Positions 5,568-63,947 of a stretch of 64,000 nt of DNA are shown one piece after another (the stretch's first letter is position 1; each line of letters starts with the position of its first letter). The DNA comes from Branchiostoma floridae (Eukaryota; Chordata; Leptocardii; Amphioxiformes; Branchiostomatidae), in assembly GCF_000003815.2 (NCBI RefSeq), contig NC_049992.1, positions 5,512,570 to 5,576,569 of the forward strand. The letters are read 5' to 3'. Both the position numbers and the translations under genes were made by a program. The notes under the pieces are model-generated. The model worked only from the letters and a program-made list of their open reading frames with translations. It ran no database searches and was not told the origin of the DNA.

Positions 5568-5958
5568 TCATATGACGAATGTGACCGCAACCTTAGACTC
5601 TGTATGTGACTGCAACCTTAGAGGACAAGTTTGACAACATCTAAGAGAGAAAGAGACATCAATATATGCTCCCTTCTGTGGGACTGAGTGTAGGCTTTGC
5701 GGGAGGGGGGCTGCCAGGAGACTCCGGTGTCTGAGAGAAAGAGACATCACTACTTGCTCCCTCCTGTGGGACTGGGTGTAGGCTTTGCGGGAGGGGGGCA
5801 ACCTACTGTATGTGACCGCAACCTTAGAGGACAAGTATGACAGGAGAGAAAGAGATCTAAGAGAGACAGAGACATCACTGCTTGCTCCCTCCTGTGGGAC
5901 TGGGTGTAGGCTTTGCGGGAGGGGGGCTGCCTGGAGACTTTGCGGGAGGGGGGCTGCC
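5568..5958 (-). repeat. Tandem duplication of the ATAD3 C-terminal exon tail into its 3' flank
   Basis: A segment containing GAGACATCACT(G/A)CTTGCTCCC and GTAGGCTTTGCGGGAGGGGGG occurs three times (about 5646-5710, 5743-5798, 5871-5930). Its copies include the stop-codon context of ATAD3. A further unit, TGTGACCGCAACCTTAGAGG, occurs near 5580-5625 and 5811-5830. Inside the coding exon a 27-bp in-frame duplication gives SPGSPPPAK twice. Confidence 0.8.
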
Positions 5959-8900
5959 TGGAGACTCGGGTGTCTGTGTGTGCAGCCATTCCATCTTCTG
6001 TCTGTGGGCGACCACAGCGTCTTGGACACGGGCGTCAATCAAGTCTTCTCCCAGGACCCCGTCTTCAGAGGCATAGGCTGTAGCCTGGTTGGGGCAAATA
6101 AAGTAATGGTAAACGTTATCTATCTAATATACTGTAAATTCATTAAAGTTTGCGGAAATTTCACAGTAGCGGGAAAAAGGACTTTTTGCGGTGGTTTTAA
6201 GTTTGCAGTAGCACCATGCACTGGTGGGGGCAAATAAAGTAATATTAAACATTATCCATCAAATATATTGTAAATTCATTAAAGTTCGCCGAGATTTAAT
6301 TTTGCGGTAGCGGGAAAAAGAACTTTTTGCTGTGGTCTTAAGTCTGCGGTAGGATTATGCACTGTACAGTCTCTAACTGCCATGGAAAGATGTTTGGTGT
6401 GGTTCTTATTCGCGGTGAATCAGCTACTGCAAAAACCACGAAAATTACACCATCGTGAAAGTTTCTGCATTTACAGTATATAGGAAAGATGTTCGCTGTG
6501 GTTCTTATTCGCGGTGAATCAGCTACTGCAAAAACCACGAAAATTACACCATCGTGAAAGTTTCTGCATTTACAGTATATATCTAATAAATAAAGTATAT
6601 ACAAATTAACAGAAGTCTACAAATTTTCAGTTCTATAACAGCTGAGCAGATTCAAATATCACATCGCATAGTACAAGAAACAAGACTCAAAACAAACAAG
6701 CTCACACAAGCTGTCACTCAAAATGTACAGACGCCAGATATAAATCTCTGTTTTAATCTATTTGTAGAGACTTCATTGCATTTGAAGACTGTTTAACTGG
6801 ACTTCTAACCTTTATAAACGTAAGCTAACACGCAAATAACAAGGAACACCTGGAACTGTAACGGAAAGTATCGCTTAACACATTTTCACTGCCTTTATTA
6901 TATGTATATACATCAGGCTTTTAGCTAGGATTTTATAATAGGGAGTCCAAACTTATCTGTGAGTCGTGGTAAGTGACTATTGTAGGGGGTCTGGGGGCAT
7001 CCACCTTCCATGGTGCAGAGTTTTTGATGATTTCAAGTTAAAGTAGTGCATTCTAAGGTTTCCCAAGTGGCAAAAATACTGTTACAGAGGTCACAGTAGA
7101 AGACTGTGAACACAGATGACCTGGTAGCATCCCTGGTCAATCAGAATTTCATGCATGTCAGATGATTTTCTCCCCAGTACAGGGCGTCCAGGGGCATCAA
7201 ATTTCTTGTTGTTCTAAGAAAAGTGCGTCCAGATGACGCGTTGACGCATGCCTTGCTAAAAGCCTGATATACATCACAAGATGCTGGCACTTTAGTTTAT
7301 GGAAGAGTGCAGGGATATTTTGCGTCACAACACTTATAGAATGGAAAATGCTTTGCATTTCAATAAGTAGGTATCTACGACACAGAATTAGTTCCCGCGC
7401 CTGATGGCGCATAGGGCGGCGCCCATCTCCGTTTCAGTAGCCCTTGGGCCACACAACGCAATCACTACAGCAGGGGGCTAGTCCACTGGTAGTGGTGTGT
7501 GTTCAACTTTCATACTCTTTCCCAAATGCTGAGTGCTAAGCATGAGCAGAGAAAGCAGCATTTACCATTTTTAAAGTCTTTGGTATGACTCGGCCGGGTA
7601 TCGAACTCACGACCTACCGAATGCAAGGTGAACACTCTACCCACTCAGCCATTGCACCGGTTTACGACACAGAATTGTTAGAGAAAAAGGTCCATTGAAT
7701 TAGTGCTGTTCCATACCTGCCAGGCCACTCCCAGCTTGGCTATCTCCCTTCCAGACAGACCCTCCACAGTTCTGGCAATCTCAGAACACTTGGCACCGTA
7801 GTCAAAGTCGGCTACCTTTATTCTCCTGAAAAACAAAACAGCAACATGCTCTAACACGACATTTCTCAGAAAAAGAAAACTGGTTTTCTTATAAAGATGC
7901 AAAACATGAAAATTCTGAGATAGCAACTGCAACTGTACCAGACTTCTTAAAATTTCAAAACGGCAACATGCTCTAACACAATATTTCTCAGAAAAAGAGA
8001 ACTGGTTTCTTATGAAGATGCAAAACACGAAAATGCTGACATAGCAACTGCAACTGTACCAGGCTTCTTAAAATTTCAAACATTAATCGATAAATGAACT
8101 AGTATGCCTATATCTATCCAGGACTTTCGTCAAGTGTTGAAGCCAAAAAGATTTGGTATTGATTCCTATATATAGAATGGTAGATGCAAGCTTTCTGACA
8201 ATTGGGAAATCAAGTTGGTATGGGCTGGAATAAAAAAAGAAACTAGAATAGTAACATTTGCAAGCAAATAAAAAATGTCTACCTTCACATGGCAGGGCTC
8301 AAAATACTGGGTGCATGTGCACCCAGGTGCACCCAAAATTGGAGCTGTGCACCCAATTATTTTCTGTGGGTGCACAGCCCGTGCACTCAAATATTTTTTT
8401 TAGGTTAAAGATATCGAGTATACTAGTATACATCATATTCTTGACATCTAAGTGTTAGAAAGATAATAAAAATGTCTGTCATGGTACTTGTTTAAGAATT
8501 TGATAGCTTGTAACTTAAAGTTTTGTTATTACGTTTTTCTGACATTCTACTTTAATTTAAGTGGTGCACCCAAAATTATTTTGGTGCACCCAATTTTTGC
8601 CTTGCCGCCAGGCAAGGCTTTACGCCAGCTTTCTTCCTTGGACGGACGGACGGACCTGTTAACCTTGCTCTTCCAAAGACCCTTTCAAAGGCCCTTCCAA
8701 ATCGCCTTTCTCATGGACAAGTTTGACGGCTCAGGCAGACAATGGTACATCCCTGTTGAATTTTAAACCGTCCATTTTACGTATTTGTTTCTGTTTGCGG
8801 TCGGTTCTAAAAGCATTTAATATTTGGTTACATTGAATAAATGAAGCGTTTGTATGGTAAAATTCCAAATTCATTTGGAGTGACATAAAATCAAGTGCAT

Positions 8901-14900: not shown

Positions 14901-17900
14901 CCGGTCGCACCTCTGGCGGTATAGACACCTACTGCTAGTAACGTCAGACCAGCAACCTGAGGAGGTCAAGAGGGCTTTTAGCTAGGATTTTATCATAGGG
15001 AGTCCAAATTTATTGGTGAATTGCCGTAAGTGACTATTGTAGGGGGGTCCGGGGGCATCCACTTTCCATGGTGCAGAGTTTTTGATGATTTTAAGTTAAA
15101 ATAGTGCATTCTAAGGTATCCTAAGAGGTAAAAATACTGTTACAGAGGTCATAGTAGAAGACTGTGACCACAGATGACCTGGTAGCATCCCTGGTCAATC
15201 AGAATTTCATGCTTGTCAGACTTTTCTCCCCAGTGTAAGGGCGTCCAGGGGCATCAAATTTCTTGTTATTCCAAGAAAAGTGACGTGTTGACGCATGCCT
15301 GGCTAAAAGCCTGAGGTCAAGTTCAGAAAATATAGCCACTGCGCTCGAAATTCATTTTTGGGATTAGGTGCACTGGTGCACCCAGCTAAAAAAAATTGGG
15401 TGCACAAAAAACTTTTTGGGTGCACCACTTAAATTTAAGTATTCTAATGTCAAAAAACCTAATAACAAAACTTAGTTACAAGCTATCAAATTCTTAAACA
15501 AGTAACATGACAGACATTTTTATTATCTTTTTAACACTTAGATGTCAAGAATATGATGTATACTAGTATACTTGATATCTTTCCATACATAAACCTAAGA
15601 AAACATTTGGGTGCACCCTGTGCACCCACTGAAAAAAATTGGGTGCACAGTTCCAATTTTGGGTGCACCTGGGTGCACATGCACCCAGTATTTCGAGCCC
15701 TGATAGCACAGCATTCAGTTTTGAACAAATATATTGGAAGGCACCAATATCAAAGACAGGCCCCTAGTGTGGCTTCTACTGATGCCAGCATAATTATATG
15801 TGTGAAACAACTACATATAGAGGGGCAAGAGCAACAGAAAGAAACAATATCCTGACTCCCGGGATTCGAACCCGGGTAGCCTGATCTTGTCCCAACACGC
15901 AAACCACAACACCAAAAGCTCAGAGCTGTTGGCCTGGTCAGTTTGGCCTACTGTTGAACCCCACTGTTACACGTTCGTGCAAGATGACCAGGTTCATAAA
16001 ATTGTTTCACAATCTACAATATTGTCGTTTGAAAGTGTTCAAGGTGGCTTGGCATGGAAGTACACGAAATGTTAACACTTGATGCATGACAATGATGACT
16101 GAGTACACTGTACTTATAGTGCAAAAATTTATAACATCATCAGCTTGTGATTAAAAGCAGGGCTCGAAATACTGGGTGCATGTGCACCCAGGTGCACCCA
16201 AAATTGGAACTGTGCACCCAATTATTTTCTGTGGGTGCACAGGGTGCACCCAATATTTTCATAGGCTTATGTATGTAAAGATATGAAAGTATACTAGTAT
16301 ACATCATATTCTTGACATCTAAGTGTTAGAAAGATAATAAAAATGCCTGTCATGGTACTTGATGAAAACATATATTAACTAAGTTTTGTTATCAGGTTTT
16401 TCTGACATTCTACTTAAATTTAAGACTTAGTGGTGCACCCAAAATTTTTTTGGTGCACCCAATTTTTTAAGCTGGGTGCACCAGTGCACTTAATCCCCAA
16501 AATGAATTTCGAGCCCTGAAAAGAGATGAACCAATGCAGCATGTAGTAATCCTGAGGTATATATACTTCAGATATTAAGGTATAAAAACTCACTGTGGCT
16601 GAAACTTTGTCCCAATCTGCAATAAAAGCCTTGAAACCATCCCCCAATACTGCACCTGCAGTTCTGGAGTGAATCACAAGGGGGCATTGTCAGTACAACC
16701 TGTCACCAATACCAACACAATTACTGCCTTAAAATCACTTTGTAGCAAGATGTATCATCGGTATGTTGTACTTTAATGCAATAGTGAAGGCATTCAGTAG
16801 TTATGCTAGATAGATCTTGCTCACACAGCACACTACTTGTTTGTAAAAATGGTCTTGTGCTACCATGCTAAGGCTAAGTTTGATACAGAAACAACAATTT
16901 GTGCCAAGATGAGAGTTTCTAGTACAACTTACTTGATCCCCTCCATGACCGTACTTCTGTGTTCGGAGGCCTTCAGTTCCACAACAAAATACTTTGGTAA
17001 AATGTGCTGTGCTACCATGGTCAGGCTAAGTTTGATACAAGAAATAACCCCACAGTATGTTTTTTTCCTTCCATTTTCACTACAAGATGAGAGTTTTCCA
17101 GCACAACTTACTTGATCCCCTCCATGACCGTAGTTCTGTGGTAAAATGTGCTGTGCTACCATGGTCAGGCTAAGTTTGATACAAGAAATAACCCCACAGT
17201 ATGTTTATTTTCTTCCATTTTCACAACAAGATGAGAGTTTTTAGCACAACTTACTTGATCCCCTCCATGACCGTAGTTCTGTGTTCGGAGGCCTTGAGTC
17301 TGATCTGCTCCAGGTTCAGGTCTTGGTTCTCACGGTCGGCTTTCGCCTTCGCTGTCGTCTCCGCTTCTATTCTCTTCATGTCGTTCTGCAGACGGAGCTG
17401 TGCCTCGTATTCCATCGTAGCTGAAGGAAATAATAATAATAAGTTTATTGCGAATCCTTGTTCTTCAGTCAAAGGGGCATTGTTTGTTTCATTTGCGGAT
17501 CCGAAATTAACTTTAACCTCCTCAAAATCTTTGTTCAAAGTACAAGACTCATAGACCATCGTCCTCAAACAAATATGCAAATTTTCTTTAAGCCAATCTT
17601 TTGCTCTTTAATCAGATTTTGGATACCCAATAGATGGAAAAAAAGTTTCTGTGGCCTGTTTGATATGTAGCAAATCCCAAGGATATCAGATCAATCATCT
17701 GATAAGTTAAACACTTATCTAATAGGAGTAGTCAGTGGGTTGGTATGGTGTCAGTCTCTTTGGAGCTTACTTGTGAGTACACCCACTTTCGGTTGCTAGA
17801 AAGCTTTCAGTTGCTCTCTCAAAGTCAAACATGCCTGTCTAAGATTGTTGCCCCATCAACTTTTGCTTGCCAGAAAGGTGACTGCAGGGTTAAACAAGTT

Positions 17901-20900
17901 TTCAAAAATTCACTTGTCCTATCAGGTAAGTACATAAAAAATTTACTTGCCCGAACCAAATTTTCACTTGCACGAAATTTAATTATATTTTTCTATGTAT
18001 TTTCACTTTGTTTACCTCGCTGACGAGAGAAAGTTTTTGAGTTTTGATGTGGCCCTATCATCCAAAATCGATGTTTCTACTGGCTTGAAAATGACATGGT
18101 CAATATAGGTAGGCATTCAGCCCCATGTGCTGTCACACTCAGTGGTAATTTGAGCGGGTCACAACTGGAAATTCTTACTTGCCCGTCGGGCAAGTGGGGA
18201 AGCACTTCTGCTTGCCCGAACAGCACTTTTACTTGCCCGGAACAATTGGGCTAATGGACTTGTTTATCCCTGGTGACTGGCACCCAAGGTACAGAATAGG
18301 AAGTTGAAACACACCAAGGCCAAAGAAACCTAATCTCCATGCAGATCCTACGATGGAATAAAATAGTACTAAACTGGCAAAGGAGTGTAGTCAGCTAAGA
18401 GGTGTGCATTTTCCTTGTAGTGTGTTTGGCAAATGTACACCTCTTGGCTGACTATACTCCTTGGCCAGTTTGGTTACAACTTATGCCATCATAGGATCTC
18501 CTTGGAGATTACTCCTTGACCAGCTTTGACCACGGTAGCGAAACACACTAAGCCGGCTTCACTCCTCTGCCAGCTTTTGATACTATCACATGCTACCATA
18601 GGATCTGCTTGCATTGGAGATTATAAGAAACCCTGCTGGGCTCCAGGGCTGTAACAAAGACAAAGAGTGAAAGTACATCACACCTTTCCTCATGGCCTCC
18701 TGTTTCTTGACCGACTCCTCCTGTCTGGCCAGCTGGTCTTCCTGCATCCTCTTCTGCTGAATAAGCTGATCGTCGTACCGCCTACGCGCCAACTGGTCCT
18801 GGTACTGTGCTCGCTGTGAAGGAGAAGGGCAAAATAGTAGATAAACTAGAGTTCAGGGACCTCATACCTCCATGAAATATTTATTGCTTTTTTTGTGGAT
18901 GGTATGTATGTTTATAGTCGGTTGTATTTGAGAGTAATGGTTATAAATGTTATGGGAAAGTAGTGGTGTATTTACACAGAGGATGTCCATCTGATTAGTA
19001 ATTATTAAAATGTGACACTTAATTGTGGAATGTGCGTTTAATAGGTCGGTGGCATATGGTAGCGTGGTGTTCCTTAAGCTTGATGTTTGGCATTTAAACT
19101 GTCTAAGGTTGTCAGCATTATTGAGGTTCGACTATGTGCCTCAGAGCGGTGTGGTGGGAGGAAGTTGGGAAACTCAAAAAGAAGGGATGTGGCCAATTTT
19201 AGTCAGATGGTGATTTGATTTTCCAACAATATGTCATAACATCAGCTGTTCACACAGTACAAAAACGAGATGCACACTTTCCTCTGACAGCCCTACACCA
19301 ACTGTAAGATGAATACTTGGCGCCAACCCCGTCTGCTAAAAAACAAGCACCATTGGCTACAAAACAGACAACTAACAACTGTCCCTTATCGTAACAAAAT
19401 CTGTATCGCCCATAAAACTTCTGACACCCAACCCAGATGAATATAACCTCCATTCCATGACATTTCATGGAGGTAACTATCATCAGTACCATTCGATTAG
19501 CTGACAGTGACAGCCTGAATTTTGTCTGCACAGAGGACCAATGCTGTCTGATGTTTTACTGATTTCAGCTGGGCAAAAGTCAATAAGAAGAACTGCTCCA
19601 TGATCATTTTCATCATCATCTTTGTCATCTCTATATAATGTTGAAATTAGGGGTGTGTACCAGTACAGATAATTCAGATCCAGGTCCAGTCCAGGTGCAG
19701 AGGATCAGGTCCCAGTCCAGACCTAAAGCTGGACCTTACTGTTTGTGAATGGGCAATACTCAAAACAATAGTCCATTTTGCTATTAATAATAAAGGAATC
19801 TGTTTGGTGGAGTGTCCTATCTTCGTCTTAACAACACTAACTGCCTCTGTTAATTTAGACCAAATATGACTATAGCAACTTGATAGATAGAATTGACTAC
19901 TGTAAATGCAGAAATGACCACTTCACCGCGAACTTAAATCCACTGCGAACATTTTTCTATCATGATATTAGATTGCAGTCTATGGTGTTACTGCGAACTT
20001 AAGTCCACTGCGAAAAGTCCTTTTTCCCGCTACCGCGAAATTAAATCCCTGCGAACTTAAATGCATTACATTATATCAACTCTCCTCTATGCACTCGTGG
20101 TATTTGCTTGGACCAATAAACGTCAAAACATAACTGACGCCGTAGTGCCGGTATAATCTGTTCATTTTCCAATCGGCACAACATCCGGTCCACTAAATTT
20201 ATAAGGGTCCATTTTTTTCTGGAATGGCCCAACAACAAAAAAAATGGATTTTTACCGGTGTGCCAGTACTAACCCCTAGTTTGTTCAAAGATCCAATATT
20301 ATGCATCTCAGCAAATTGACTCTAAATTCTTAGGAAGTCAAACTCAAAGGAGCTTCTTGAGCAGCTGAGGACCTTGACTTGTGCCAGTTCTTACCTCCTG
20401 ATGTTGTTTGGTCTCTGCTGCCATGAGACAGTTCTTACCTCCTGATGTTGTTAAGTCTCTGCTGCCATGAGACAGTTCTTACCTCCTGATGTTGTTTGGT
20501 CTCTGCTGAGACAGTTCTTACCTCCTGATGTTGTTTAGTCTCTGCTGCCATGAGACAGTTCTTACCTCCTGATGTTGTTTGGTCTCTGCTGCCATGAGAC
20601 AGTTCTTACCTCCTGATGTTGTTTAGTCTCTGCTGAGACAGTTCTTACCACCTGATGTTGTTTAGTCTCTGCTGAGACAGTTCTTACCTCCTGNNNNNNN
20701 NNNNNNNNNNNNNNNNNNNNNNNNNNNNNNNNNNNNNNNNNNNNNNNNNNNNNNNNNNNNNNNNNNNNNNNNNNNNNNNNNNNNNNNNNNNNNAGCTGCA
20801 CTCTGTGATGCGCAATTCCTCACATGGATTAGCATGGAAAATGTTACAGTTAAAAGCTGGACACACTCAAGGAAAAAGACGAGCCTGGAGACAGCTTTGT

Positions 20901-22218
20901 GTCTACCTTGTCTCTCGAACGACCTGGAGGTCAAGGGACAAGGTAGGTACATGTAGGTAGACCCTAAGTTTTAAAGATACATGTATGATGTACTTTCTAG
21001 CTCTTATATAGAGATATGAAGATAGTACATGTCTGTATATTAGACCATTCAATGATAGTTATCCTAAACTGTGAATACAAACTGCTGACATTTGATGAGG
21101 AATTAACACTTTGTTAGCAAGCTAAAGTATTGAGCCAGCGTTTACTACAGAGTGACCTCTGGCTCAACACTTTCACTTGCTAACCACTGGTCACTACAGG
21201 AGAAGGTAGTCAGGCTAGAATTTACTCACTTTGATCTCTTTCTGTTGCTCCAACTGTTTGGTCTCCTCCTGCATGCGAGCCAGCTGGAGAGCCTCTTTTG
21301 CATTGACTGGGAGTGAGGAATAGAGAAACGATCAGTCAGACTTACTCAGAGCATTTCGAGTGTCTTTGAAATCAAAGGTCTTTGATTTGGAAGGTTGATA
21401 AGGAGTTTGAGGTGACTCTGACAGCTGAAGGAGTGGCCTGGATGCCAGACTGTTTCCAGGGCCTACAGACCAGCTCCTCTAGCTATCTGCTCTACAGCGT
21501 ATACATTTGTACACCATTACATGCAGGCCTGAAGAACTTTAACCACAGCCCTTTTACCACCAACTACGATTTCTTTCTTCGTTCATCAAACTGTGTCATT
21601 CAAATTTCAATATTTATGTTAGTCATCGCTCATCAAGTCACTGGAATATTGTGAATATTCATGAATATGATTTGTGACCTTCATAAATTGATCCGCATAT
21701 GGAGGTCAAGTGCCAGGCCACATGCACCATAATGCTTAACAATCATATACATACATGTATTCATACCTTATATTCATAAAAGAAATTTTGCATCATACGC
21801 TCAATCATAAATCATGCAAGTATTTTGAGGTACAAATAATTATGTACGAAGAAAAAGCATGCTAGTACTGTATTTAGTAAAAATAAGAGAGGTACTGATG
21901 TAAATTAAACCATAATTTGTATGGCTGACCATCAACACATTTTAACGTTCATTATTCAGTATAAAACAAAAATTCCGATCTCTATCTACGCCCAGATCTC
22001 GACTTACCAGATTTGTCCAGCTCTCTTGCCGCCGACGCTGCCCGTTCAAGTCCCGTCGGGTCGAACTTCCATCCTCCCCCTCCTCCACCGCCGCCTCCCT
22101 CCGAACCTTCCGACGACCCCTTCCCCTTGTCGTCTCCCCCCGGGGGTGGTGGGGGGTTGGCGAACTGGGTAAAGTCCTGGGGGTACTGGTCCTTCTTCAC
22201 TCCGAATAACCACGACAT
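5875..22218 (-). CDS. ATAD3: ATAD3, mitochondrial inner-membrane AAA+ ATPase; exon 3 largely in assembly gap
   Basis: Exons on the minus strand: 22218-22008, 21306-21230, [exon 3 in gap, ending at or near 20688], 18813-18684, 17420-17255, 16663-16594, 14956-14801, 14085-14029, 13635-13510, 13096-12972, 12198-12147, 11829-11759, 11599-11508, 11117-11039, 7825-7717, 6084-5875. Visible exons give 576 residues; exon 3 would add about 30 (human ATAD3A isoforms are 586-634). The N-terminus MSWLFGVKK is followed by a poly-Gly run and [10 protein letters not shown], then a long coiled coil ([31 protein letters not shown]-like KASEHR). Then come [18 protein letters not shown] (membrane segment), Walker A GPPGTGKT, Walker [12 protein letters not shown], sensor 1 [16 protein letters not shown] and [10 protein letters not shown]. 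In the known family, the ATPase spans the inner membrane and organises nucleoids and membrane contacts. The C-terminus is Pro/Ser-rich, with SPGSPPPAK twice. Confidence 0.97.
6119..6585. mobile_element. Rearranged TA-flanked MITE ('GCGGTAGCGGGAAAAA' family) with duplicated halves
   Basis: The left half (ACTGTAAATTCATTAAAGTT, then TAGCGGGAAAAAG) appears twice, at about 6130-6230 and 6269-6360. The right half (GTGGTTCTTATTCGCGGTGA to GTTTCTGCATTTACAGTATA) appears twice, at about 6398-6482 and 6499-6583. A simple copy of the same family is at 47457-47664. Confidence 0.7.
6914..7266 (+). mobile_element. hAT-type MITE family B, copy 1
   Basis: The 353-bp element has ends CAGGCTTTTAGC and GCTAAAAGCCTG and an exact 8-bp target duplication ATATACAT on both sides (6906-6913, 7267-7274). 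CAG ends with an 8-bp duplication are the hAT signature. It lies in the last ATAD3 intron. A second copy is at 14971-15313. Confidence 0.9.
7390..7662 (-). mobile_element. tRNA-derived SINE, copy 1
   Basis: Read on the minus strand, the head is tRNA-like: box A TGGCTGAGTGGGTAGAG and box B GAGTTCGATACC, followed by a body shared with 36400-36670. An exact 14-bp direct repeat TACGACACAGAATT flanks it (7376-7389 and 7663-7676), as expected for LINE-mobilised insertion. It lies in the ATAD3 intron between exons 15 and 16, antisense to the plus strand and parallel to the gene. Confidence 0.85.
7826..8060. repeat. Partial tandem duplication downstream of ATAD3 exon 15 acceptor
   Basis: A segment with CAACATGCTCTAACACGA, ATTTCTCAGAAAAAGA, AACTGGTTT and ATGCAAAAC occurs twice (about 7850-7945 and 7965-8062), giving a period near 116 bp within the intron. 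Confidence 0.7.
8598..10334. mobile_element. 1.74-kb TIR element nested in MITE A
   Basis: The outer ends are exact 11-bp inverted repeats, TGCCTTGCCGC and GCGGCAAGGCA. Subterminal copies of the same motif (GCCAAGGCACAGC, TTGCCTTGCCGG) occur near 10250-10280. No transposase frame was found, so it is non-autonomous. It carries a tRNA-like Pol III unit at 9398-9480. Confidence 0.7.
9398..9480 (+). ncRNA. tRNA-like Pol III unit (SINE head or tRNA pseudogene)
   Basis: A box-A-like TGGCGTAGTGGTTAGCG (9404-9420) and a perfect box B GGTTCGAACCC (9448-9458) are followed by a T-run (9470-9480) that could terminate Pol III. The T-stem pairs poorly and the acceptor stem does not close, so it is not a functional tRNA. 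The anticodon cannot be assigned. Confidence 0.6.
10440..11025 (+). mobile_element. LINE 3' end fragment
   Basis: The frame ends at 10770 with [20 protein letters not shown], which resembles the extreme C-terminus of non-LTR reverse transcriptases. A 3' UTR follows, ending AATAAACCTTGAACCTTGAA (about 11000-11020), a short-repeat LINE tail. It is antisense to ATAD3 and ends about 15 bases from the exon 14 donor. Confidence 0.65.
11220..11421 (+). mobile_element. LINE reverse-transcriptase C-terminal fragment
   Basis: The plus frame reads [20 protein letters not shown], then [12 protein letters not shown] and GSFKKLLQ, and stops near 11419. This is the conserved C-terminal block of CR1-like RTs (FFPRTIxxWN). 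It is in the intron between ATAD3 exons 13 and 14, antisense to the gene. Confidence 0.8.
12290..12740. repeat. Minisatellite, about 50-60-bp unit, about 9 copies
   Basis: The unit contains ATAACAGCTAAAACTAGAGA and TTTAGTGTGTCTACAATGTA and is repeated between ATAD3 exons 10 and 11. Two copies carry an extra ATTAAAAAGTATTA insertion. No coding content. Confidence 0.9.
14276..14718 (+). mobile_element. hAT-like element 'TAGGGGTGGGTACGG', copy 1
   Basis: The ends TAGGGGTGGGTACGGGTAC and GTACCGGTAAACCAACCCCTA are inverted, with an exact 8-bp duplication ATCAGTAA on each side. It is 443 bp and non-coding, in the ATAD3 intron between exons 7 and 8. A related element is at 19649-20277 and a partial one at 38890-39045. 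Confidence 0.85.
14971..15313 (+). mobile_element. hAT-type MITE family B, copy 2, beside an ATAD3 splice acceptor
   Basis: It matches 6914-7266 end to end, with an exact 8-bp duplication AGGTCAAG (14963-14970, 15314-15321). The left edge is 14 bases from the exon 7 coding boundary (14956), so the element supplies sequence where the branch point would lie. Confidence 0.9.
15339..15702 (-). mobile_element. MITE family A copy 2
   Basis: Opposite orientation to the other copies: it begins with a mutated end CTGCGCTCGAAATT and finishes GTATTTCGAGCCCTG. The interior GGGTGCACC subrepeats are conserved. ATAGC occurs at both edges, slightly offset. Confidence 0.85.
15855..15930 (-). ncRNA. tRNA-like Pol III promoter unit (SINE head)
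   Basis: The minus strand gives a T-arm CCCGGGTTCGAATCCCGGG with a perfect stem, preceded by a box-A-like TGGTGTTGTGGTTTGCGTG. Its spacing resembles the unit at 9398, suggesting one tRNA-derived family. A functional tRNA cannot be folded with confidence. Confidence 0.55.
16158..16518 (+). mobile_element. MITE family A copy 3 (most intact)
   Basis: 361 bp, with ends CAGGGCTCGAAAT and ATTTCGAGCCCTG and a 5-bp duplication AAAAG on both sides (16153-16157, 16519-16523). Confidence 0.9.
16840..17300 (-). repeat. Triplicated ATAD3 exon 5 3' end with splice donor
   Basis: A block starting at AGATGAGAG, then CAACTTACTTGATCCCCTCC and ATGACCGTA(G/C)TTCTGTG, occurs at about 16908, 17085 and 17228. The last is the real exon 5 end (donor at 17254-17253). 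Each upstream copy keeps the donor plus 30-60 bases of exon, joined to an intronic segment with TGTGCTACCATGGTCAGGCT. The two extra copies lie in the downstream intron. Confidence 0.9.
17424..17460 (-). mobile_element. LINE-like tail at the exon 5 acceptor
   Basis: On the gene strand a GCAATAAACTTATTATTATT tail lies directly before the exon 5 acceptor (AG at 17422-17421), so it forms the pyrimidine-rich tract. The same tail type recurs at 54460-54490. Confidence 0.45.
17885..18272 (+). mobile_element. MITE family 'CTTGCCCG' copy 2
   Basis: Ends CAGGGTTAAACAAGT and ACTTGTTTATCCCTG; GTGACTG occurs on both sides. It is homologous to 4512-4833. Confidence 0.75.
18300..18625. mobile_element. MITE-like repeats 'ATCTCCATGCAGATCC / GCCAGCTTTGATAC'
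   Basis: The segment shares CCATAGGATCTGCTTG, TTGGCCAGTTT and AGGAGTGTAG motifs with 25541-25676 and 26143-26360. It appears as rearranged copies between ATAD3 exons 4 and 5. Confidence 0.55.
19649..20277 (+). mobile_element. hAT-like 'TAGGGGTG' element copy 2 with nested MITE
   Basis: Ends TAGGGGTGTGTACCAGTAC and GCCAGTACTAACCCCTA. A MITE of the 'GCGG' family (CTGTAAATGC ... GCATTACA, 19900-20071) is inserted within it. Confidence 0.7.
20388..20693 (-). repeat. Splice-donor minisatellite of ATAD3 exon 3, 8 copies of 39 or 44 bp, running into the gap
   Basis: On the gene strand each unit reads AGACCAAACAACATCAGGAG followed by GTAAGAACTGTCTCA. The first part encodes ETKQHQE, matching the conserved ATAD3 sequence before RAQYQD of exon 4; the second is a good 5' splice site. 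Units differ by a 5-bp CCATG insertion (39 versus 44 bp). The array is cut by the N block at 20694. Confidence 0.92.
20694..20793. other. Assembly gap (100 N)
   Basis: Exactly 100 N, the usual placeholder for unknown length. It falls where ATAD3 exon 3 must lie. Just beyond it the gene strand reads TTGCGCATCACAG then AGTGCAGCT, a possible acceptor and first codons. Confidence 0.95.
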
Positions 22219-22544: not shown

Positions 22545-25500
22545 ATGGCCGCGCCCATGGATTTTTGTGTGGCCGTGAAAAAAGAGGACGCACAAAACGT
22601 TCGAAAGAAACTCGAAGCGGCGGGGATTCTCGACAGATCAAGGAAAATTCAAATTCTGTCGACTGGAGAAGCTGTTATACCTGTCAAGAATCACACATCT
22701 GAAGAGATAAATGACATTTTAGGAACGTTAACATTAGACCACAGGATTTTGGATGGCGCCCCCCTCCAACCCTCTAGGAGAAAACAACATATTTCCCAGC
22801 AAGACCGACTGCGGACAGCCATTTCTAAGTTGTTAGATAAAGAAGAGTTGGACAGAGAGCTTGAAACGGACATTCCAACGAGATGGGAGAAACATGGAGA
22901 CCTTATCCTTTTGCCAGAATTTTCTTTTAGGTGTGCCCCATAATTTAATATTCTAGCCATTAAACTATGATTGATGTTATAACTTTATTTTGTGAATTTG
23001 AACAAAACAAGTTGTAGTCTGGCAGTTTGGATGGAAACCGGTTGTTGGAATTTTCGACAGCAGTGCACATACATGAGTTTGAATCAATCAAACTATGGAG
23101 CCCCAAGCAGTTACCGTAAAATACGGACTCTATACTGATATCGAGTCTAAGGGACCGTACGGCGTTTAGTGAGGGGGGAGGGCCGGTCGCCAGAGGGTCG
23201 GGTCAAAAAATTTTTGCATGGCCCTCCCCCCAGGTAAAAATTTTTTTGCTAGGCCCTCCCCCCAAGACAAAATATTTTTGCTTGGCCCTCCCCCCTCCTA
23301 TCAACTTTGAAAAAAATATTCAAGACGCCAATAAAACACTGCGCTCCCGCATTTGGAAATGTGCTTTGCGTCATACTTTTTCTTCATCGAGAAGCAGATC
23401 TCTCACCCCTAGTAAAAAAGGAAAACAGAATGGCTCAAAATATCTGCTAAATAGAGGGATAAATATCTGCTTCATAGAGGCATAAATATTTGCTTTATAG
23501 AAGCTATTTCATTGTTTTGATATTAAAACAACACCTAAAAAGCATTTGTACCTGGATTTCTAGTAGATTTGCGCCACGAAGCGGCGCGCGCCCCGCTCCC
23601 TAAATGTACGTATTGCAAGCTCGCGGGAGCGGGCCTGAGCGGCTTGACGGAAACTATTTTCAATTTACATATATTTTGGACTTTTTCTTGGTTCTGTGGT
23701 GGTAATAACTTTTGGTAAATCGGGGGAAAAAATGAATACCAAAACGACAGCACGATTCGACTTCCAAAACTGTAGTGGGGAGGGGGGCGCCGACGCGTGA
23801 CGCTGATTTTCCCACGGCGGGGTAAGACCGGTCGCCTCTCTCTAGCCGCCAGCGGGCGTGAGACCGCAGACTTGCAGGAGATCTTTTAGAAATGCCACGC
23901 TTTTTTTGCCACGATTTCCTGCATTGCTTTTTTATGGGAAAATTTGCTGGTTAGATGACATTTCTATGAAAAAAAAAATACGAGGGTTTCAAGTTTTTGA
24001 GAACGACGTTCCGAACACCATGTTCGGCGCGAAAGGCACGAAGAATCGCAAGGTAGGTCCGGGAGAATTTTGAAATCTTGACCCTCTTAAAAGCTATTTC
24101 CTTCAGTTTGAGGAGATATTTTGCTGACAAACAAAGCTAACTTTAATAGCATTTCAATTTAGAAATACAAAATTAAATCCCCCCCAAACACATTATCACG
24201 ATGTCGGTCATCAAAGGCGCGAGGCCGGTCACGTCAAAAGGGATCCAGGGAAATTTGCAAATGTTTACCTTCGAGCTCTGAAACGCCATTTCTTACATTT
24301 TGAGGGCAATAAGACAGGGATAAATTTTGCTGGCAGACTAATCTAGAGTTTAATAACATTTCTGTGCGTGAAGAAGGTTTTCGAGGGCGTCATGCATAAG
24401 CCCTGCCCCCTCACTTTCGCATTTTCACTGTATCCCGAGCGCCAACCTCGGGCGATCCCTTGCAGAGGTCCAGAAAAATTTTGAAATCTTGACCCTCTGT
24501 AACGCCGTTTCTTGGATTTTAAGGGACATCTTTTGCTGGCAGACCAAGCTATTTTTTTTTTGCTTGGCCCTCCCCCCAAGTAAAAAAAAATTGCTAGGCC
24601 CTCCCCCTGGCAAAATATTTTTTTGCTTGGCCCTCCCCCCCCTGGCGACCGGCCCTCCCCCCTCGCTAAATGCCGTACGGTCCCTAAGTATGCAGACCCA
24701 GGTACAGGGCTTTAGCCAGCTTAAATTTTTTTTCCGTCAGCCAATTACAATCGTCGCGAAAATTAATTAGAAGAACTGAACTGAAACCTTGAAAAACGGG
24801 TTTTAATGAGATTATCCTATCCGAAAGGGCGCCGACACATATTGTCAACAATCATAACAATTGAATAGCAAAACAAACAGTGTATGGCTTTTACGGCCGT
24901 GGACGGCGTCCCCAAGCCGCCTGTAGCTTCCAACAAGGATTTTTGTCCTTCAAGGTTGACGGAGTGGTTTTAAGATTTTTCCGTGAGACGCAACAAATTT
25001 CCGTCAATTGACGGAAAAACGGACGCTGGCTAGAGCCCTGCCCAGGTATGATATAAAAGCTTAAAGGCATCTCCATTCAGATTCGCCATGACTAGCATAT
25101 CCCCAATATGTATGAAATGTTTCATTATTAACATGTCTAAAATTTGGATTCTGAGGTCAGCTTAGAATTGCTTTCTCAATTTTTTCCAGATCTCCCAAAT
25201 GGAAAGAGATCCAGGCAAAATTTCACCAGCAGGACTGTGAGAACCAAGGCCTGCCCTGTCAGATGTACAGATGTTTCTGGCAGCTGATAACTGAGTCCCT
25301 GGGGGGGACCCGACTGGCCAGGAAGGGCACCATACAGGACGACCTCTACAGGTCACCCAGGGTGGAGCTGTTGCTAGGCGACCATGGATGGGTGGGGCAC
25401 ACAGACAATGGGATCAGGTGGATGTCTATTCTGTTTTCTAGCATCTACCAGGCTAGAATTTGCCCCCAAAATGGTGAAATTGACCAGGGGAGTTAATCAA

Positions 25501-42100: not shown

Positions 42101-45100
42101 ATCAAACAAAAAGTATTAAATTTTACAATGCCATGTAGTAACTGAAGTAGTAAACAAAAATGTTGTTGTGTTTGTCTCAGCTGCCAGCCAACAGATACTG
42201 CTACACATCCTGGCATGAAGTCAGAAATGCGGAGGTCAAAGGTGACCAGCTCAACTGTCCACGGATTAGAGAAGGTAGGGAACAGTCACTTTATATTGAT
42301 GGAAAAGTATTTGCAATTACCAATACTTAGTTCTAGTAGAAATGCTTTGTTTGATTATTTGCCATTAATTATGAGGCCTGCCCTAACGTATAAATATGTG
42401 ACACCTTAAGAAATTGTCTTGTTTGGTGTGCAGTATCTTGACATTGGTTTGTCGTTTACCTCAGGTCCCAGAGAAAAGGAGAGAACGTTTTACTCTCTGC
42501 GTGATGAGGATGGTAACCCGATCCACCACGACAGGAAAGGGAAGAAACGGATGGACTATAGGAACAAGATGGAGAACTGGGAAAACGCAGTGGTGAGGCT
42601 TCAAGTTTTTATAGATATTCAACTGAATGTCTTCTTTCTTAATCTAGTTGACCGTGTACTTGAATGTGATTTTCTTAGAGAACAAAAGAGAGGATTTCTT
42701 TTTTCTAGCCTAAGACCGTATCAACAATGTAATAAAATCAGATTAGTTAGTCTAACCAAAAAATTGAAAACTACAAAAAAAGTACATTTACTTTATATGT
42801 TGGAGCATTTGCCTGGAGTCCCAGCAGTCCCTACCTTGTGGGATAGTAACAATTGAGAGTGGACCAAAGCGAACAAGGCTTAGCCTCCTTCACCGGCCTC
42901 TCTGAGGGCATTGGCATCAGTTGTTAGGGGGGAGGTCGATTCGCGATTTTTACTGATACGCCAGGAAGGAAAATATGGCGTGAGAGGAATATATGCCGGG
43001 AAGCTTGTACTCGCCCCCAGCGAGCCTGCGAGATTTCGGCATGCACAAAGCCCCATTAAAAACACTTAAAACCATTTGGTATGGATGTGCAAACTTCCCG
43101 TCATAAAATGTTCGCTGTGGTTTTAAGTTCGCGGTGAAGTGGCTACTGTGAAAACTGCGAAAATAAGACCACCGCAAAAGTGTAGTACTTTGTAGCTAAA
43201 TGGCTGTCAGAAATACTGCAGACTTTTGCTCCAACATCTGCTTGCATTCTTGCGAATCAATAAACAGATGTTGATACATTGTGTTCTCTTTGTCTCCAGT
43301 CCGTCAACTTGTCCTTCCAAGACCTGGGCGATGCCTACCAGCGTGAGAACTTCATTAGAGTCTTGAAGAGGCTGATCAGAGCTGAGGAGTTACAGCTGAT
43401 GGACGACTCACTAACGGACTTACACTCTGTCTCCTTACCAAGGTACAGACCAGTAACTCTGTCTGTCTTCCATGATTCTTGATAAACTCACTAACAGACT
43501 TACATGCTGTTTTCTTACCAAGGTACAGGCCAGTAACTGTGTCTGTGTTCAGTGATTCTTTATAAACTCACTAACAGACTTACAGGCTGTGTCCTTACCA
43601 AGGTACAGACCAGTAACTGTGTCTGTCTTCTGTGATTCTTTATAAACTCACTAACAGACTTACAGGCTGTGTCCTTACCAAGGTACAGACCAGTAACTGT
43701 GTCTGTCTTCTGGGATTCTTTATAAACTCTCTAACAGACTTACAGGCTGTGTCCTTACCAAGGTACAGACCAGTAACTCTGTCTGTCTTCTGTGATTCTT
43801 TATAAACTCACTAACGGACTTCAGGCTGTCTCCTTACCAAGGTACGGGCCAGTAACTGTGTCTGTCTTCTGGGATTCTTTATAAACTCACTAACAGACTT
43901 ACACGCTGTGTCCTTACCAAGGTACAGGCCAGTAACTGTGTCTGTCTTCTGTGATTCTTTATAAACTCACTAACAGACTTACACGCTGTGTCCTTACCAA
44001 GGTACATGCCAGTAACTGTGTCTGTCTTCTGGGATTCTTTATAAACTCTCTAACAGACTTACACGCTGTGTCCTTACCAAGGTACAGGCCAGTAACTGTG
44101 TCTGTCTTCTGTGATTCTTTATAAACTCACTAACAGACTTACACGCTGTGTCCTTACCAAGGTACAAGCCAGTAACTGTGTCTGTCTTCTGTGATTCTTT
44201 ATAAACTCACTAACAGACTTACACGCTGTGTCCTTACCAAGGTACGGGCCAGTAACTGTGTCTGTCTTCTGTGATTCTTTATAAACTCACTAACAGACTT
44301 ACACGCTGTGTCCTTACCAAGGTACAGACCAGTAACTGTGTCTGTCTTCTGTGATTCTTTATAAACTCACTAACAGACTTACAGGCTGTGTCCTTACCAA
44401 GGTACAGGTCAGTAACTGTGTCTGTCTTCTGTGATTCTTTATAAACTCTCTAACAGACTTACAGGCTGTGTCCTTACCAAGGTACAGGCCAGTATCTCAA
44501 CGTGTCTGTCTTCTGGGATTTGATAAAAAGCATTAAAGTTTGATGTTTAATTCTAAGTGTGCCTAATACATGTAGTATACTACTAGTATGTGAAACTGAA
44601 AAAAAATGTCAAATTCAATCTCAAATCTGATTGTAAAATGAGGATACTAAATTTCTTGAGTTGCATGGCTGATTTGTTTATTCCCTCTTCAGGTGTAAAT
44701 ACTTGAATTTGAGCAGAAATTTCCTCCCATCATTTAAGGTAAGACAGACTTTTATCATAACTGTTTTAACTTTATGATAAATTATTACATGTAAGAAATA
44801 CAGTTGTGTGTTGTTTGTTCTCTTTCTGTAGTATTCCAGTTATTATTCACTACTTACTTTGGATATTTCTAAAGGAATTGAGCATTTTTCTCTACTTTTG
44901 TTTCTTATTGAATATGAAAAGCTTTAAAGAACATCTTAATTATGTTGATTGTGTTATATTTACTAACGATGTTTGTTTGTTCTATAGAAGTTGCCCAGGT
45001 TACCAGTGGTAGAACACCTGTATCTGGAACAGAACAACATCACTTCGTTAGACGGTCTGGACGTGTTGAGAAAAGCACCACTTCAGTCCCTCCATCTCAG

Positions 45101-62414: not shown

Positions 62415-63947
62415 ATGGAGTTCGAGTACGTTTTACCCGGCGACATGGATGTTTTCGTGGACAACGCCACGACCAACGCTTCCTGTGGCAATGGGACCGT
62501 ACTGGAAGGTGCAGACATCCTGCCATCTGTTGGACCCACCGCTGGGAGGATCGCTACAGCAGCCTTCCTCTTCCTGATCGCTGCACTGACTGTGGTGAGT
62601 TGTGAAGAAACATCACATCGTTGCTTTGCTTATTTGCAATGTTCATTTGCTTCTGAATCAATATCTCTCGTATTTATCATTACACGTATTGTTACCTTGC
62701 TTTGATAGTTGTAAGTTCTTGTTATGTTACCATTATGTTGTCAACATAACATTATTTATTTTATTGTTTTGTTTTAATATCTTATGTGTTTCATACGCTA
62801 CCTTGTGTTGATTGTTACTAGTTCTTGTTATGTTCTTATTATTAACATTTCTTAACTGATTTGCTGATTTTGTTTCAATATCTTACGTATTTGTTATCAT
62901 TAAGTTACTTTGCATTGATATTCGTAAGTTCTTGTTATGTTACCGTTGTTAACATCACATCAATTATTTGCTTATTTTATTTCAATATCTTACGTATTTG
63001 TCATCATTAACTTACCTTCCGTTGATATTTGTAAGTTCTTGTTTTGTTACCGTTGTTACACATTCCATGATTCATCTGTTCATATTATTTCAATATCTTA
63101 TGGTGCATTTGTTAACTTACGTTGATAGTTGTAAGCTCTTGATGTGTTACCGTTGATTTTAATTGATATCAATATCGATGACTGTGTTATTTCTGAGGTA
63201 TTCCTCCAAGGAACATTAAAAACGCCAGCTTATAGAGGATATACCTCCTGGATGATAAGTAAACAAACAAACAAAAAACAACTAATCTTCAAGCAGATCT
63301 CTTTACGGTAATGGGACATCCGGTCGCTCATTTTCTTCAGATGATAAAGTTCATGCAAGTGTTTTGAATATGTACACGTAATTTTTTAGGCATAGCACAA
63401 TTTCAAGAGTCCTTATTACCAAAAACAACAGCAGGGTAATGCGTATAAAGAACAAGAGTTAATCTAGCAATCACCCAAACTTGCAAACAATTCTATTGGC
63501 AGGGTCAATTTAAAATAACTAGTCCTACACCATGCACCTGAGGCCGTTGCAATTTTCCTTATAAGCTGTAGTGGCCATTGGTTTGCAACGGAAATCCAAA
63601 ATTTCAATAGCGGGCAATTACTGCTCTCCAAGCAAAGGTTAGGCTCCGGCTGTTTTTTAACGTTTTTTTAGTCGTTTTTATCGGGCTTTCTATTTTTTTT
63701 AATTTTATCTTGCTGGGTACTTTAAAAAAAATGACAAAATAGAAAGCCCGATAAAAACGACTAAAAAAACGCTAAAAAAACGGCCCGAGCCTAACCTCTG
63801 CTTGGAGAGTAGGCAATTACAGTGGATGTGTCTTTCTTTGCCCCGCAGGTTGGAAACGGGCTGGTCCTGTTGGCTGTAGCCAAGCATAGAAGTCTGCAGA
63901 CTCTGACTAATGCCTTCATCATGTCTCTCTGCGTCTCAGACTTGCTG
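62415..63947 (+). CDS. Class A GPCR, aminergic-like, first two coding exons (N-terminus to TM2), continues past window
   Basis: Exons 62415-62594 and 63849-63947 join in phase to 93 residues. The extracellular N-terminus carries three N-glycosylation sequons (NAT, NAS, NGT). TM1 is RIATAAFLFLIAALTVVGN, with the conserved GN (Asn 1.50), followed by the basic loop AKHRSLQTLTN. TM2 runs NAFIMSLCVSDLL, with the Asp 2.50. LQTLTN-FI-SL is typical of beta-adrenergic, dopamine and related amine receptors, so an amine ligand is likely but not proven. The second exon ends at CTG/GTAAGT inside TM2. The start has AACGATGG context and lies 5 bases after a probable acceptor. Confidence 0.88.
62620..63165. 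repeat. About 105-bp tandem repeat in the GPCR intron, 5 copies
   Basis: The unit includes TTGATAGTTGTAAGTTCTTG, TTATGTTACCGTTGTTAAC and TTTCAATATCTTACGTATTT; anchors are near 62703, 62811, 62916, 63020 and 63121. Confidence 0.85.
63614..63818. mobile_element. Foldback element, about 83-bp arms
   Basis: The left arm 63614-63696 and right arm 63736-63818 are nearly exact reverse complements (CTCTCCAAGCA, GGTTAGGCTC, TTTTTATCGGGCTTTCTATT), separated by about 39 bases. The right arm ends about 30 bases before GPCR exon 2. Confidence 0.9.

What the first reader, a model, noticed from the sequence alone, without database searches (positions are those of the whole stretch)
20388..20793. Donor minisatellite in ATAD3 whose nearest copies are in frame
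Eight units repeat ETKQHQE codons plus a GAG/GTAAGA donor. Reading past the donor beside the gap, the first two units are 39 bp, giving 13-residue repeats ([13 protein letters not shown] type) with no stop; the next 44-bp unit shifts frame and ends in a stop. Donor choice could therefore lengthen the N-terminal coiled coil by 13 or 26 residues. The array may continue into the gap.
Basis: partly seen in the sequence, partly recalled or inferred. Interest (0 to 1): 0.75.

Follow-up and report, generated by a model that had tools for sequence, protein, structure and literature searches.

The report
Tandem-repeated splice donor in amphioxus ATAD3
The end of one exon of a mitochondrial ATPase gene, together with its splice signal, has been copied about eight times in a row; this is a kind of repeat already known from lancelets, and its open reading frame is no more than chance would give.

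Summary
On the minus strand at 20693-20385, eight GTAAGAACTG donors lie 39, 39, 44, 44, 39, 44 and 44 bp apart. Each unit is the last 29 or 34 bp of ATAD3 exon 3 plus 10 bp of its intron; the array runs into a 100-N gap. Using donor 2 or 3 instead of donor 1 adds 13 or 26 codons without a stop; donor 4 shifts the frame and donors 5-8 put a stop in the insert.

It is a 'mirage' minisatellite, a tandem copy of an exon-intron boundary, as reported in lancelet Adh3, troponin C, globin and PGBD5 genes. ATAD3 exon 5 has a second one, where read-through stops at once; a third ends an exon of another gene.

Being in frame is unremarkable: a 39-bp unit of this layout would be open at 9 of 15 ATAD3 donors, and the family profile has one copy. 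I infer that the exon-attached donor is used and the other copies stay intronic. Twenty-two residues of exon 3 should lie in the gap. No RNA data were available and no second copy of the locus was found, so use of donors 2 and 3 is not excluded.

The parts
20385..20693 (-). Minisatellite of exon-3 tail (29 or 34 bp) plus intron-3 head (10 bp): eight donors, seven full units; may continue into the gap
20610..20693 (-). Gap-proximal 39-bp units, open in the ATAD3 frame across donors 1-3
20694..20793 (.). Gap of 100 N; should hold the exon-3 acceptor, 22 residues of exon 3 (PF12037 columns 69-90) and perhaps more units (inferred)
22008..22218 (-). ATAD3 exon 1, coding part from ATG (MSWLFG)
21230..21306 (-). 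ATAD3 exon 2, phase 0 donor
18684..18813 (-). ATAD3 exon 4 (RAQYQDQL...), phase 0 acceptor, the splice partner of the array
17255..17420 (-). ATAD3 exon 5 with its authentic donor
16933..17255 (-). Second mirage in ATAD3: exon-5 end plus GTAAGT with last exonic base at 17255, 17112 and 16933; read-through meets TAA from the second intron base
   Evidence: TRF 16995-17283
43406..44520 (+). Third mirage: exon end ...[15 protein letters not shown] repeated; 14 AAG|GTAC sites 79-80 bp apart in an array of 13.9 TRF copies, in a leucine-rich-repeat-like gene (named by eye, no Pfam support)

Best explanation
It is a mirage minisatellite: a tandem array born when the tail of ATAD3 exon 3 and the head of its intron were duplicated, then expanded by slippage or unequal exchange. 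Splicing most likely joins the real exon 3 (acceptor and first 22 residues in the gap, then one [12 protein letters not shown] copy) to exon 4 from the donor attached to that exon, and the downstream copies leave with the intron. The in-frame 39-bp units are the exon's own end repeated at a length that happens to divide by three; the 44-bp units differ by a 5-bp indel. Shown: the array, its make-up, the frames, the single-copy fit to the family, two sister arrays in the window. Inferred: which donor is used, neutrality, and the origin of the first duplication (perhaps at a short shared ACTG; its exon side is in the gap).
For: Unit composition and frames. One copy aligns to PF12037 columns 91-102 and exon 4 continues at 103; extra copies lower the score by about 15 bits. 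Block structure 39-44-44, 39-44-44 (TRF period 127; units 4 and 8 identical) is what array turnover would give. In the sister array at exon 5 read-through gives TAA at once, so only the first donor can serve the protein there. Two of 15 ATAD3 donors, 0 of 14 acceptors and 42 of 400 random positions in the gene have a copy within 1500 bp at 30 of 40 bases or better: no sign that donors are targeted. In 264 kb of this genome 3 of 41 arrays repeat a strong donor, against a mean of 3.16 (sd 1.70) in 500 draws, 315 of which reach 3. Published lancelet mirages have the same anatomy. Genome size 513 Mb and 19 sampled contigs of 17-35 Mb that sum to 484 Mb fit a lancelet with 19 chromosomes (B. floridae, PMC12373286, passages).
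Against: No RNA was available, so donor use is inferred. The authentic donor may lie in the gap. The two spacings next to the gap are the ones that keep the frame, though with three 39s among seven that order has a 1 in 7 chance. All eight copies keep an intact GTAAGA, so none is disabled by mutation. In lancelet PGBD5 a published gene model did read two repeats as an exon of 57 residues; the authors left it out without transcript evidence either way. One search is a small sample and its motif misses the third array. No tool names the species.
Confidence: 0.87

Rival explanations
1. Functional alternative donors: donors 1-3 are all used and give ATAD3 with 0, 13 or 26 extra residues in the N-terminal coiled coil.
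For: Donors 2 and 3 are intact, open and in frame. Human ATAD3A isoform 1 has 48 more residues in coiled coil 1 than isoform 2 (PMC10419812, passages). PMC3087553 says mirage splice signals could act as cryptic sites.
Against: In-frame openness is common by chance; the family profile has one copy; Adh3 and globin mirages are reported not to interfere with splicing; 13 and 26 break heptad register.
Confidence: 0.07
2. Poison-donor switch: use of donors 4-8 gives a frameshift or early stop and lowers ATAD3 mRNA through nonsense-mediated decay, so that donor choice tunes expression.
For: Donors 5-8 put a stop in the insert and donor 4 shifts the frame, with a stop in exon 4.
Against: Most downstream donors in any such array would do this; no conservation or transcript evidence was available.
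Confidence: 0.03
3. Assembly artefact: the copies result from collapsed or concatenated haplotypes beside the gap, and the true locus has one or few copies.
Against: Units differ by substitutions and a 5-bp indel in an ordered pattern; seven complete units lie in contiguous sequence; the genome search found the array in one place and ATAD3 exons 4-5 in one place, though it scores only the best candidates.
Confidence: 0.04

Closest known systems
Mirage minisatellites of lancelets (Adh3; globins BflGb6 and BflGb9; troponin C; PGBD5)
   Same: Tandem units that span an exon-intron boundary and repeat splice signals; units of 10 to 160 bp, 60 and 108 bp in PGBD5; several copies (PMC3087553 and PMC3902484, passages).
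   Different: ATAD3 is not among the genes named in the passages seen, nor did a paper on this locus appear among those listed. Here the exon-proximal units happen to keep the frame. Length variation, reported for Adh3 and BflGb6, was not testable.
Intron gain by tandem duplication of an AGGT proto-splice site (Rogers model, as discussed in PMC3087553)
   Same: Repeated AGGT-containing units inside a gene.
   Different: No new exon or intron is evident; the copies lie in an existing intron next to an existing exon.
Human ATAD3A isoform 1
   Same: Longer coiled coil 1 in one isoform (48 residues; PMC10419812, passages).
   Different: Nothing seen ties it to repeated donors; its position relative to this exon was not checked.

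Membership tests
Mirage minisatellite | Tandem repeat whose unit spans an exon-intron boundary | tested here: met
   29/34 bp exon tail plus 10 bp intron head in each unit; exon identity by PF12037 columns 91-102
Mirage minisatellite | Splice signal repeated in the copies | tested here: met
   8 of 8 donors GTAAGA
Mirage minisatellite | Regular splicing not disturbed | not testable with these tools
   No RNA data held
Mirage minisatellite | Length instability between haplotypes or tissues | not testable with these tools
   One locus found in the assembly, no reads
Mirage minisatellite | Lancelet genome | tested here: inconclusive
   513 Mb in 431 contigs, 19 sampled contigs of 17-35 Mb fit B. 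floridae with 19 chromosomes; no tool names the species
ATAD3 | ATAD3_N domain | tested here: met
   PF12037 313.3 bits, E 1.6e-93, columns 20-265 of 265, for joined exons 1-7 with 22 X
ATAD3 | AAA ATPase core with Walker A | tested here: met
   GPPGTGKT in exon 9; residues 321-374 of the joined protein match AAA chains; PF00004 on unspliced sequence only E 0.0048, 17.8 bits, below its cut-off of 21.2
Functional alternative donor | Transcripts that use more than one donor | not testable with these tools
   No RNA data held

The most novel reading that the evidence does not exclude
The array works as a length-variable coding element: donors 1-3 are all used, and alleles or cells that differ in the number of 39-bp units make ATAD3 proteins whose coiled coils differ in 13-residue steps, so that a mirage becomes a source of protein variation.
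Probability: 0.05. Interest if true: 0.6.

Novelty: new member of a known kind. Interest (0 to 1): 0.22.

Why it matters
It adds a gene with two arrays in it to the lancelet mirages in print, and shows that the reading frame of such arrays needs a chance estimate before function is read into it. A first small sample gives no sign that minisatellites in this genome prefer donors. The locus would be a natural test of how the spliceosome picks one of eight identical donors.

Tried and rejected
Enrichment of arrays on donors, as a sign of targeting or function: not found (2 of 15 donors, 0 of 14 acceptors, 42 of 400 random positions; 3 of 41 arrays against a mean of 3.16). In one search the exon-12 boundary was entered one base off and exon 3 was tested from donor 2, as donor 1 is too near the gap; the exon-3 acceptor is not in the sequence. 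The third array was not counted, as GTACAG does not fit the motif used there; one of the three counted (L016) lies at the end of its stretch.

A second haplotype or stray copy to close the gap: not found (the tool scores only the best candidates and skips common words). The missing part of exon 3 between gap and exon 2: no ATAD3 match in three frames of 20794-21229 (proteins 4-6; two weak hits to other families, both below their cut-offs). Solved ATAD3 structures: none in the 58 chains listed, which match the AAA core only; the unspliced query gave none. Arrays at 62820 and 12297 were taken as intronic by eye; that at 7834 abuts but does not span the exon-15 acceptor. Passages of an earthworm metallothionein paper with intronic minisatellites (PMC12783039) did not bear on the question. 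The helix content of the open stretch could not be predicted (structure jobs never ran).

Full report
What is there. The minus strand at 20693-20385 carries eight copies of GTAAGAACTG with spacings 39, 39, 44, 44, 39, 44 and 44. TRF finds the array at 20385-20693 with the best score at period 127, that is 39+44+44. Each unit is an exon tail (29 bp, or 34 bp with a 5-bp indel) and a 10-bp intron head. Units 4 and 8 are identical, and unit 6 equals them apart from the indel. The array runs into a 100-N gap, 20694-20793.

The gene. Sixteen ATAD3 exons were read on the minus strand from 22218 to about 5875; boundaries were set by eye on reading frames and GT/AG signals, and the exon-3 acceptor was not seen. 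Joined exons 1-7, with 22 X for the missing part, match PF12037 (ATAD3_N) at 313.3 bits over columns 20-265 of 265. Exons 1-2 end at column 68, the repeat [12 protein letters not shown] takes columns 91-102 and exon 4 starts at 103. So exon 3 should encode 34 residues. Twenty-two of them (columns 69-90) were not found between the gap and exon 2 and, with the acceptor, should lie in the gap.

Frames. Taking donor 1 as reference, donor 2 adds 39 nt and donor 3 adds 78 nt, open and in frame. Donor 4 adds 122 nt, a frameshift that meets a stop in exon 4. Donors 5-8 have a stop in the insert.

Is the frame special? The unit is the exon's own end plus ten intron bases, so it is open if its length divides by three and the ten bases hold no stop. 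Simulating units at the 15 ATAD3 donors, 6682 of 35735 (18.7%) are in frame and open; for the exact 29+10 layout, 9 of 15, exon 3 included. Adding one or two copies costs the family match about 15 bits (298.2 and 298.1 against 313.3), about the price of opening a gap, so only mild evidence. I saw no sign of selection for the frame.

Sister arrays. Exon 5 of the same gene has copies of its end and GTAAGT with last exonic bases at 17255, 17112 and 16933; read-through gives TAA at once, so there the first donor must serve the protein. On the plus strand a leucine-rich-repeat-like exon ending [11 protein letters not shown] is followed by copies of its end, with 14 AAG|GTAC sites 79-80 bp apart; in its frame read-through stops within the first unit. 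That gene's name rests on reading alone, as Pfam gave no match above its cut-off.

Chance. Two of 15 ATAD3 donors have copies within 1500 bp at 30 of 40 bases or better, none of 14 acceptors, and 42 of 400 random positions in the gene. In 264 kb (20 fetched stretches and the window) 3 of 41 arrays of period 20 or more repeat a strong donor, against a mean of 3.16 (sd 1.70) with units drawn from elsewhere; 315 of 500 draws reach 3. In this sample the arrays need no attraction to donors.

Known kind. Tandem repeats over exon-intron boundaries in lancelets are called mirages. I saw passages of PMC3087553: it reports them in BflGb6 and BflGb9, cites Adh3 and other loci, says that Adh3 data and globin RT-PCR suggest no interference with regular splicing while the repeated signals could act as cryptic sites, and describes haplotype and somatic length variation. 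Passages of PMC3902484 report 60- and 108-bp repeats at PGBD5 splice sites and cite troponin C; there a gene model read two repeats as a 57-residue exon, which the authors left out without transcript evidence. The original Adh3 paper is not held, so I know it only through these two. The window's genome has 513,431,437 bases in 431 contigs; the 19 contigs sampled are 17-35 Mb and sum to 484 Mb, which fits B. floridae with 19 chromosomes (PMC12373286, passages). No tool names the species. No paper on this locus appeared among those listed (15 of 15; 20 of 85; 15 of 68; 15 of 21; 12 of 18); the library holds open-licence papers only.

Mechanism. Most likely the exon-attached donor is used and the rest are spliced out. 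Shown: anatomy, frames, single-copy fit. Inferred: donor use, neutrality, origin by duplication. Against: all eight donors are intact, the authentic one may be in the gap, and there is no RNA. Human ATAD3A isoform 1 has 48 extra residues in coiled coil 1 (PMC10419812, passages), so an insert in that region is not absurd.

Noticed in passing
16933-17283, minus strand: A second donor-spanning array in ATAD3 (exon 5), three donors spaced 143 and 179 bp; the third copy holds a longer piece of exon.
   Followed up: yes
43406-44520, plus strand: An 80-bp unit repeated about 14 times that carries the end of a leucine-rich-repeat-like exon and AAG|GTAC.
   Followed up: partly
5911-5966 and 5662-5802, minus strand: The last ATAD3 exon has a 27-bp coding repeat (SPGSPPPAK twice), and a further copy of the protein's C-terminal end lies downstream of the stop codon.
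   Followed up: partly
7834-8080: A 121-bp duplication in ATAD3 intron 14 stops a few bases short of the exon-15 acceptor without copying it.
   Followed up: partly
L016:9741-10000: A 134-bp tandem repeat elsewhere in the genome, at the end of the fetched stretch, with a CAGGTAAGA-type donor twice: another candidate mirage.
   Followed up: no
22545-22940, plus strand: A gene starts head-to-head with ATAD3; its first exon looks like the tRNA wybutosine enzyme TYW2 (by recall, no call tested it).
   Followed up: no
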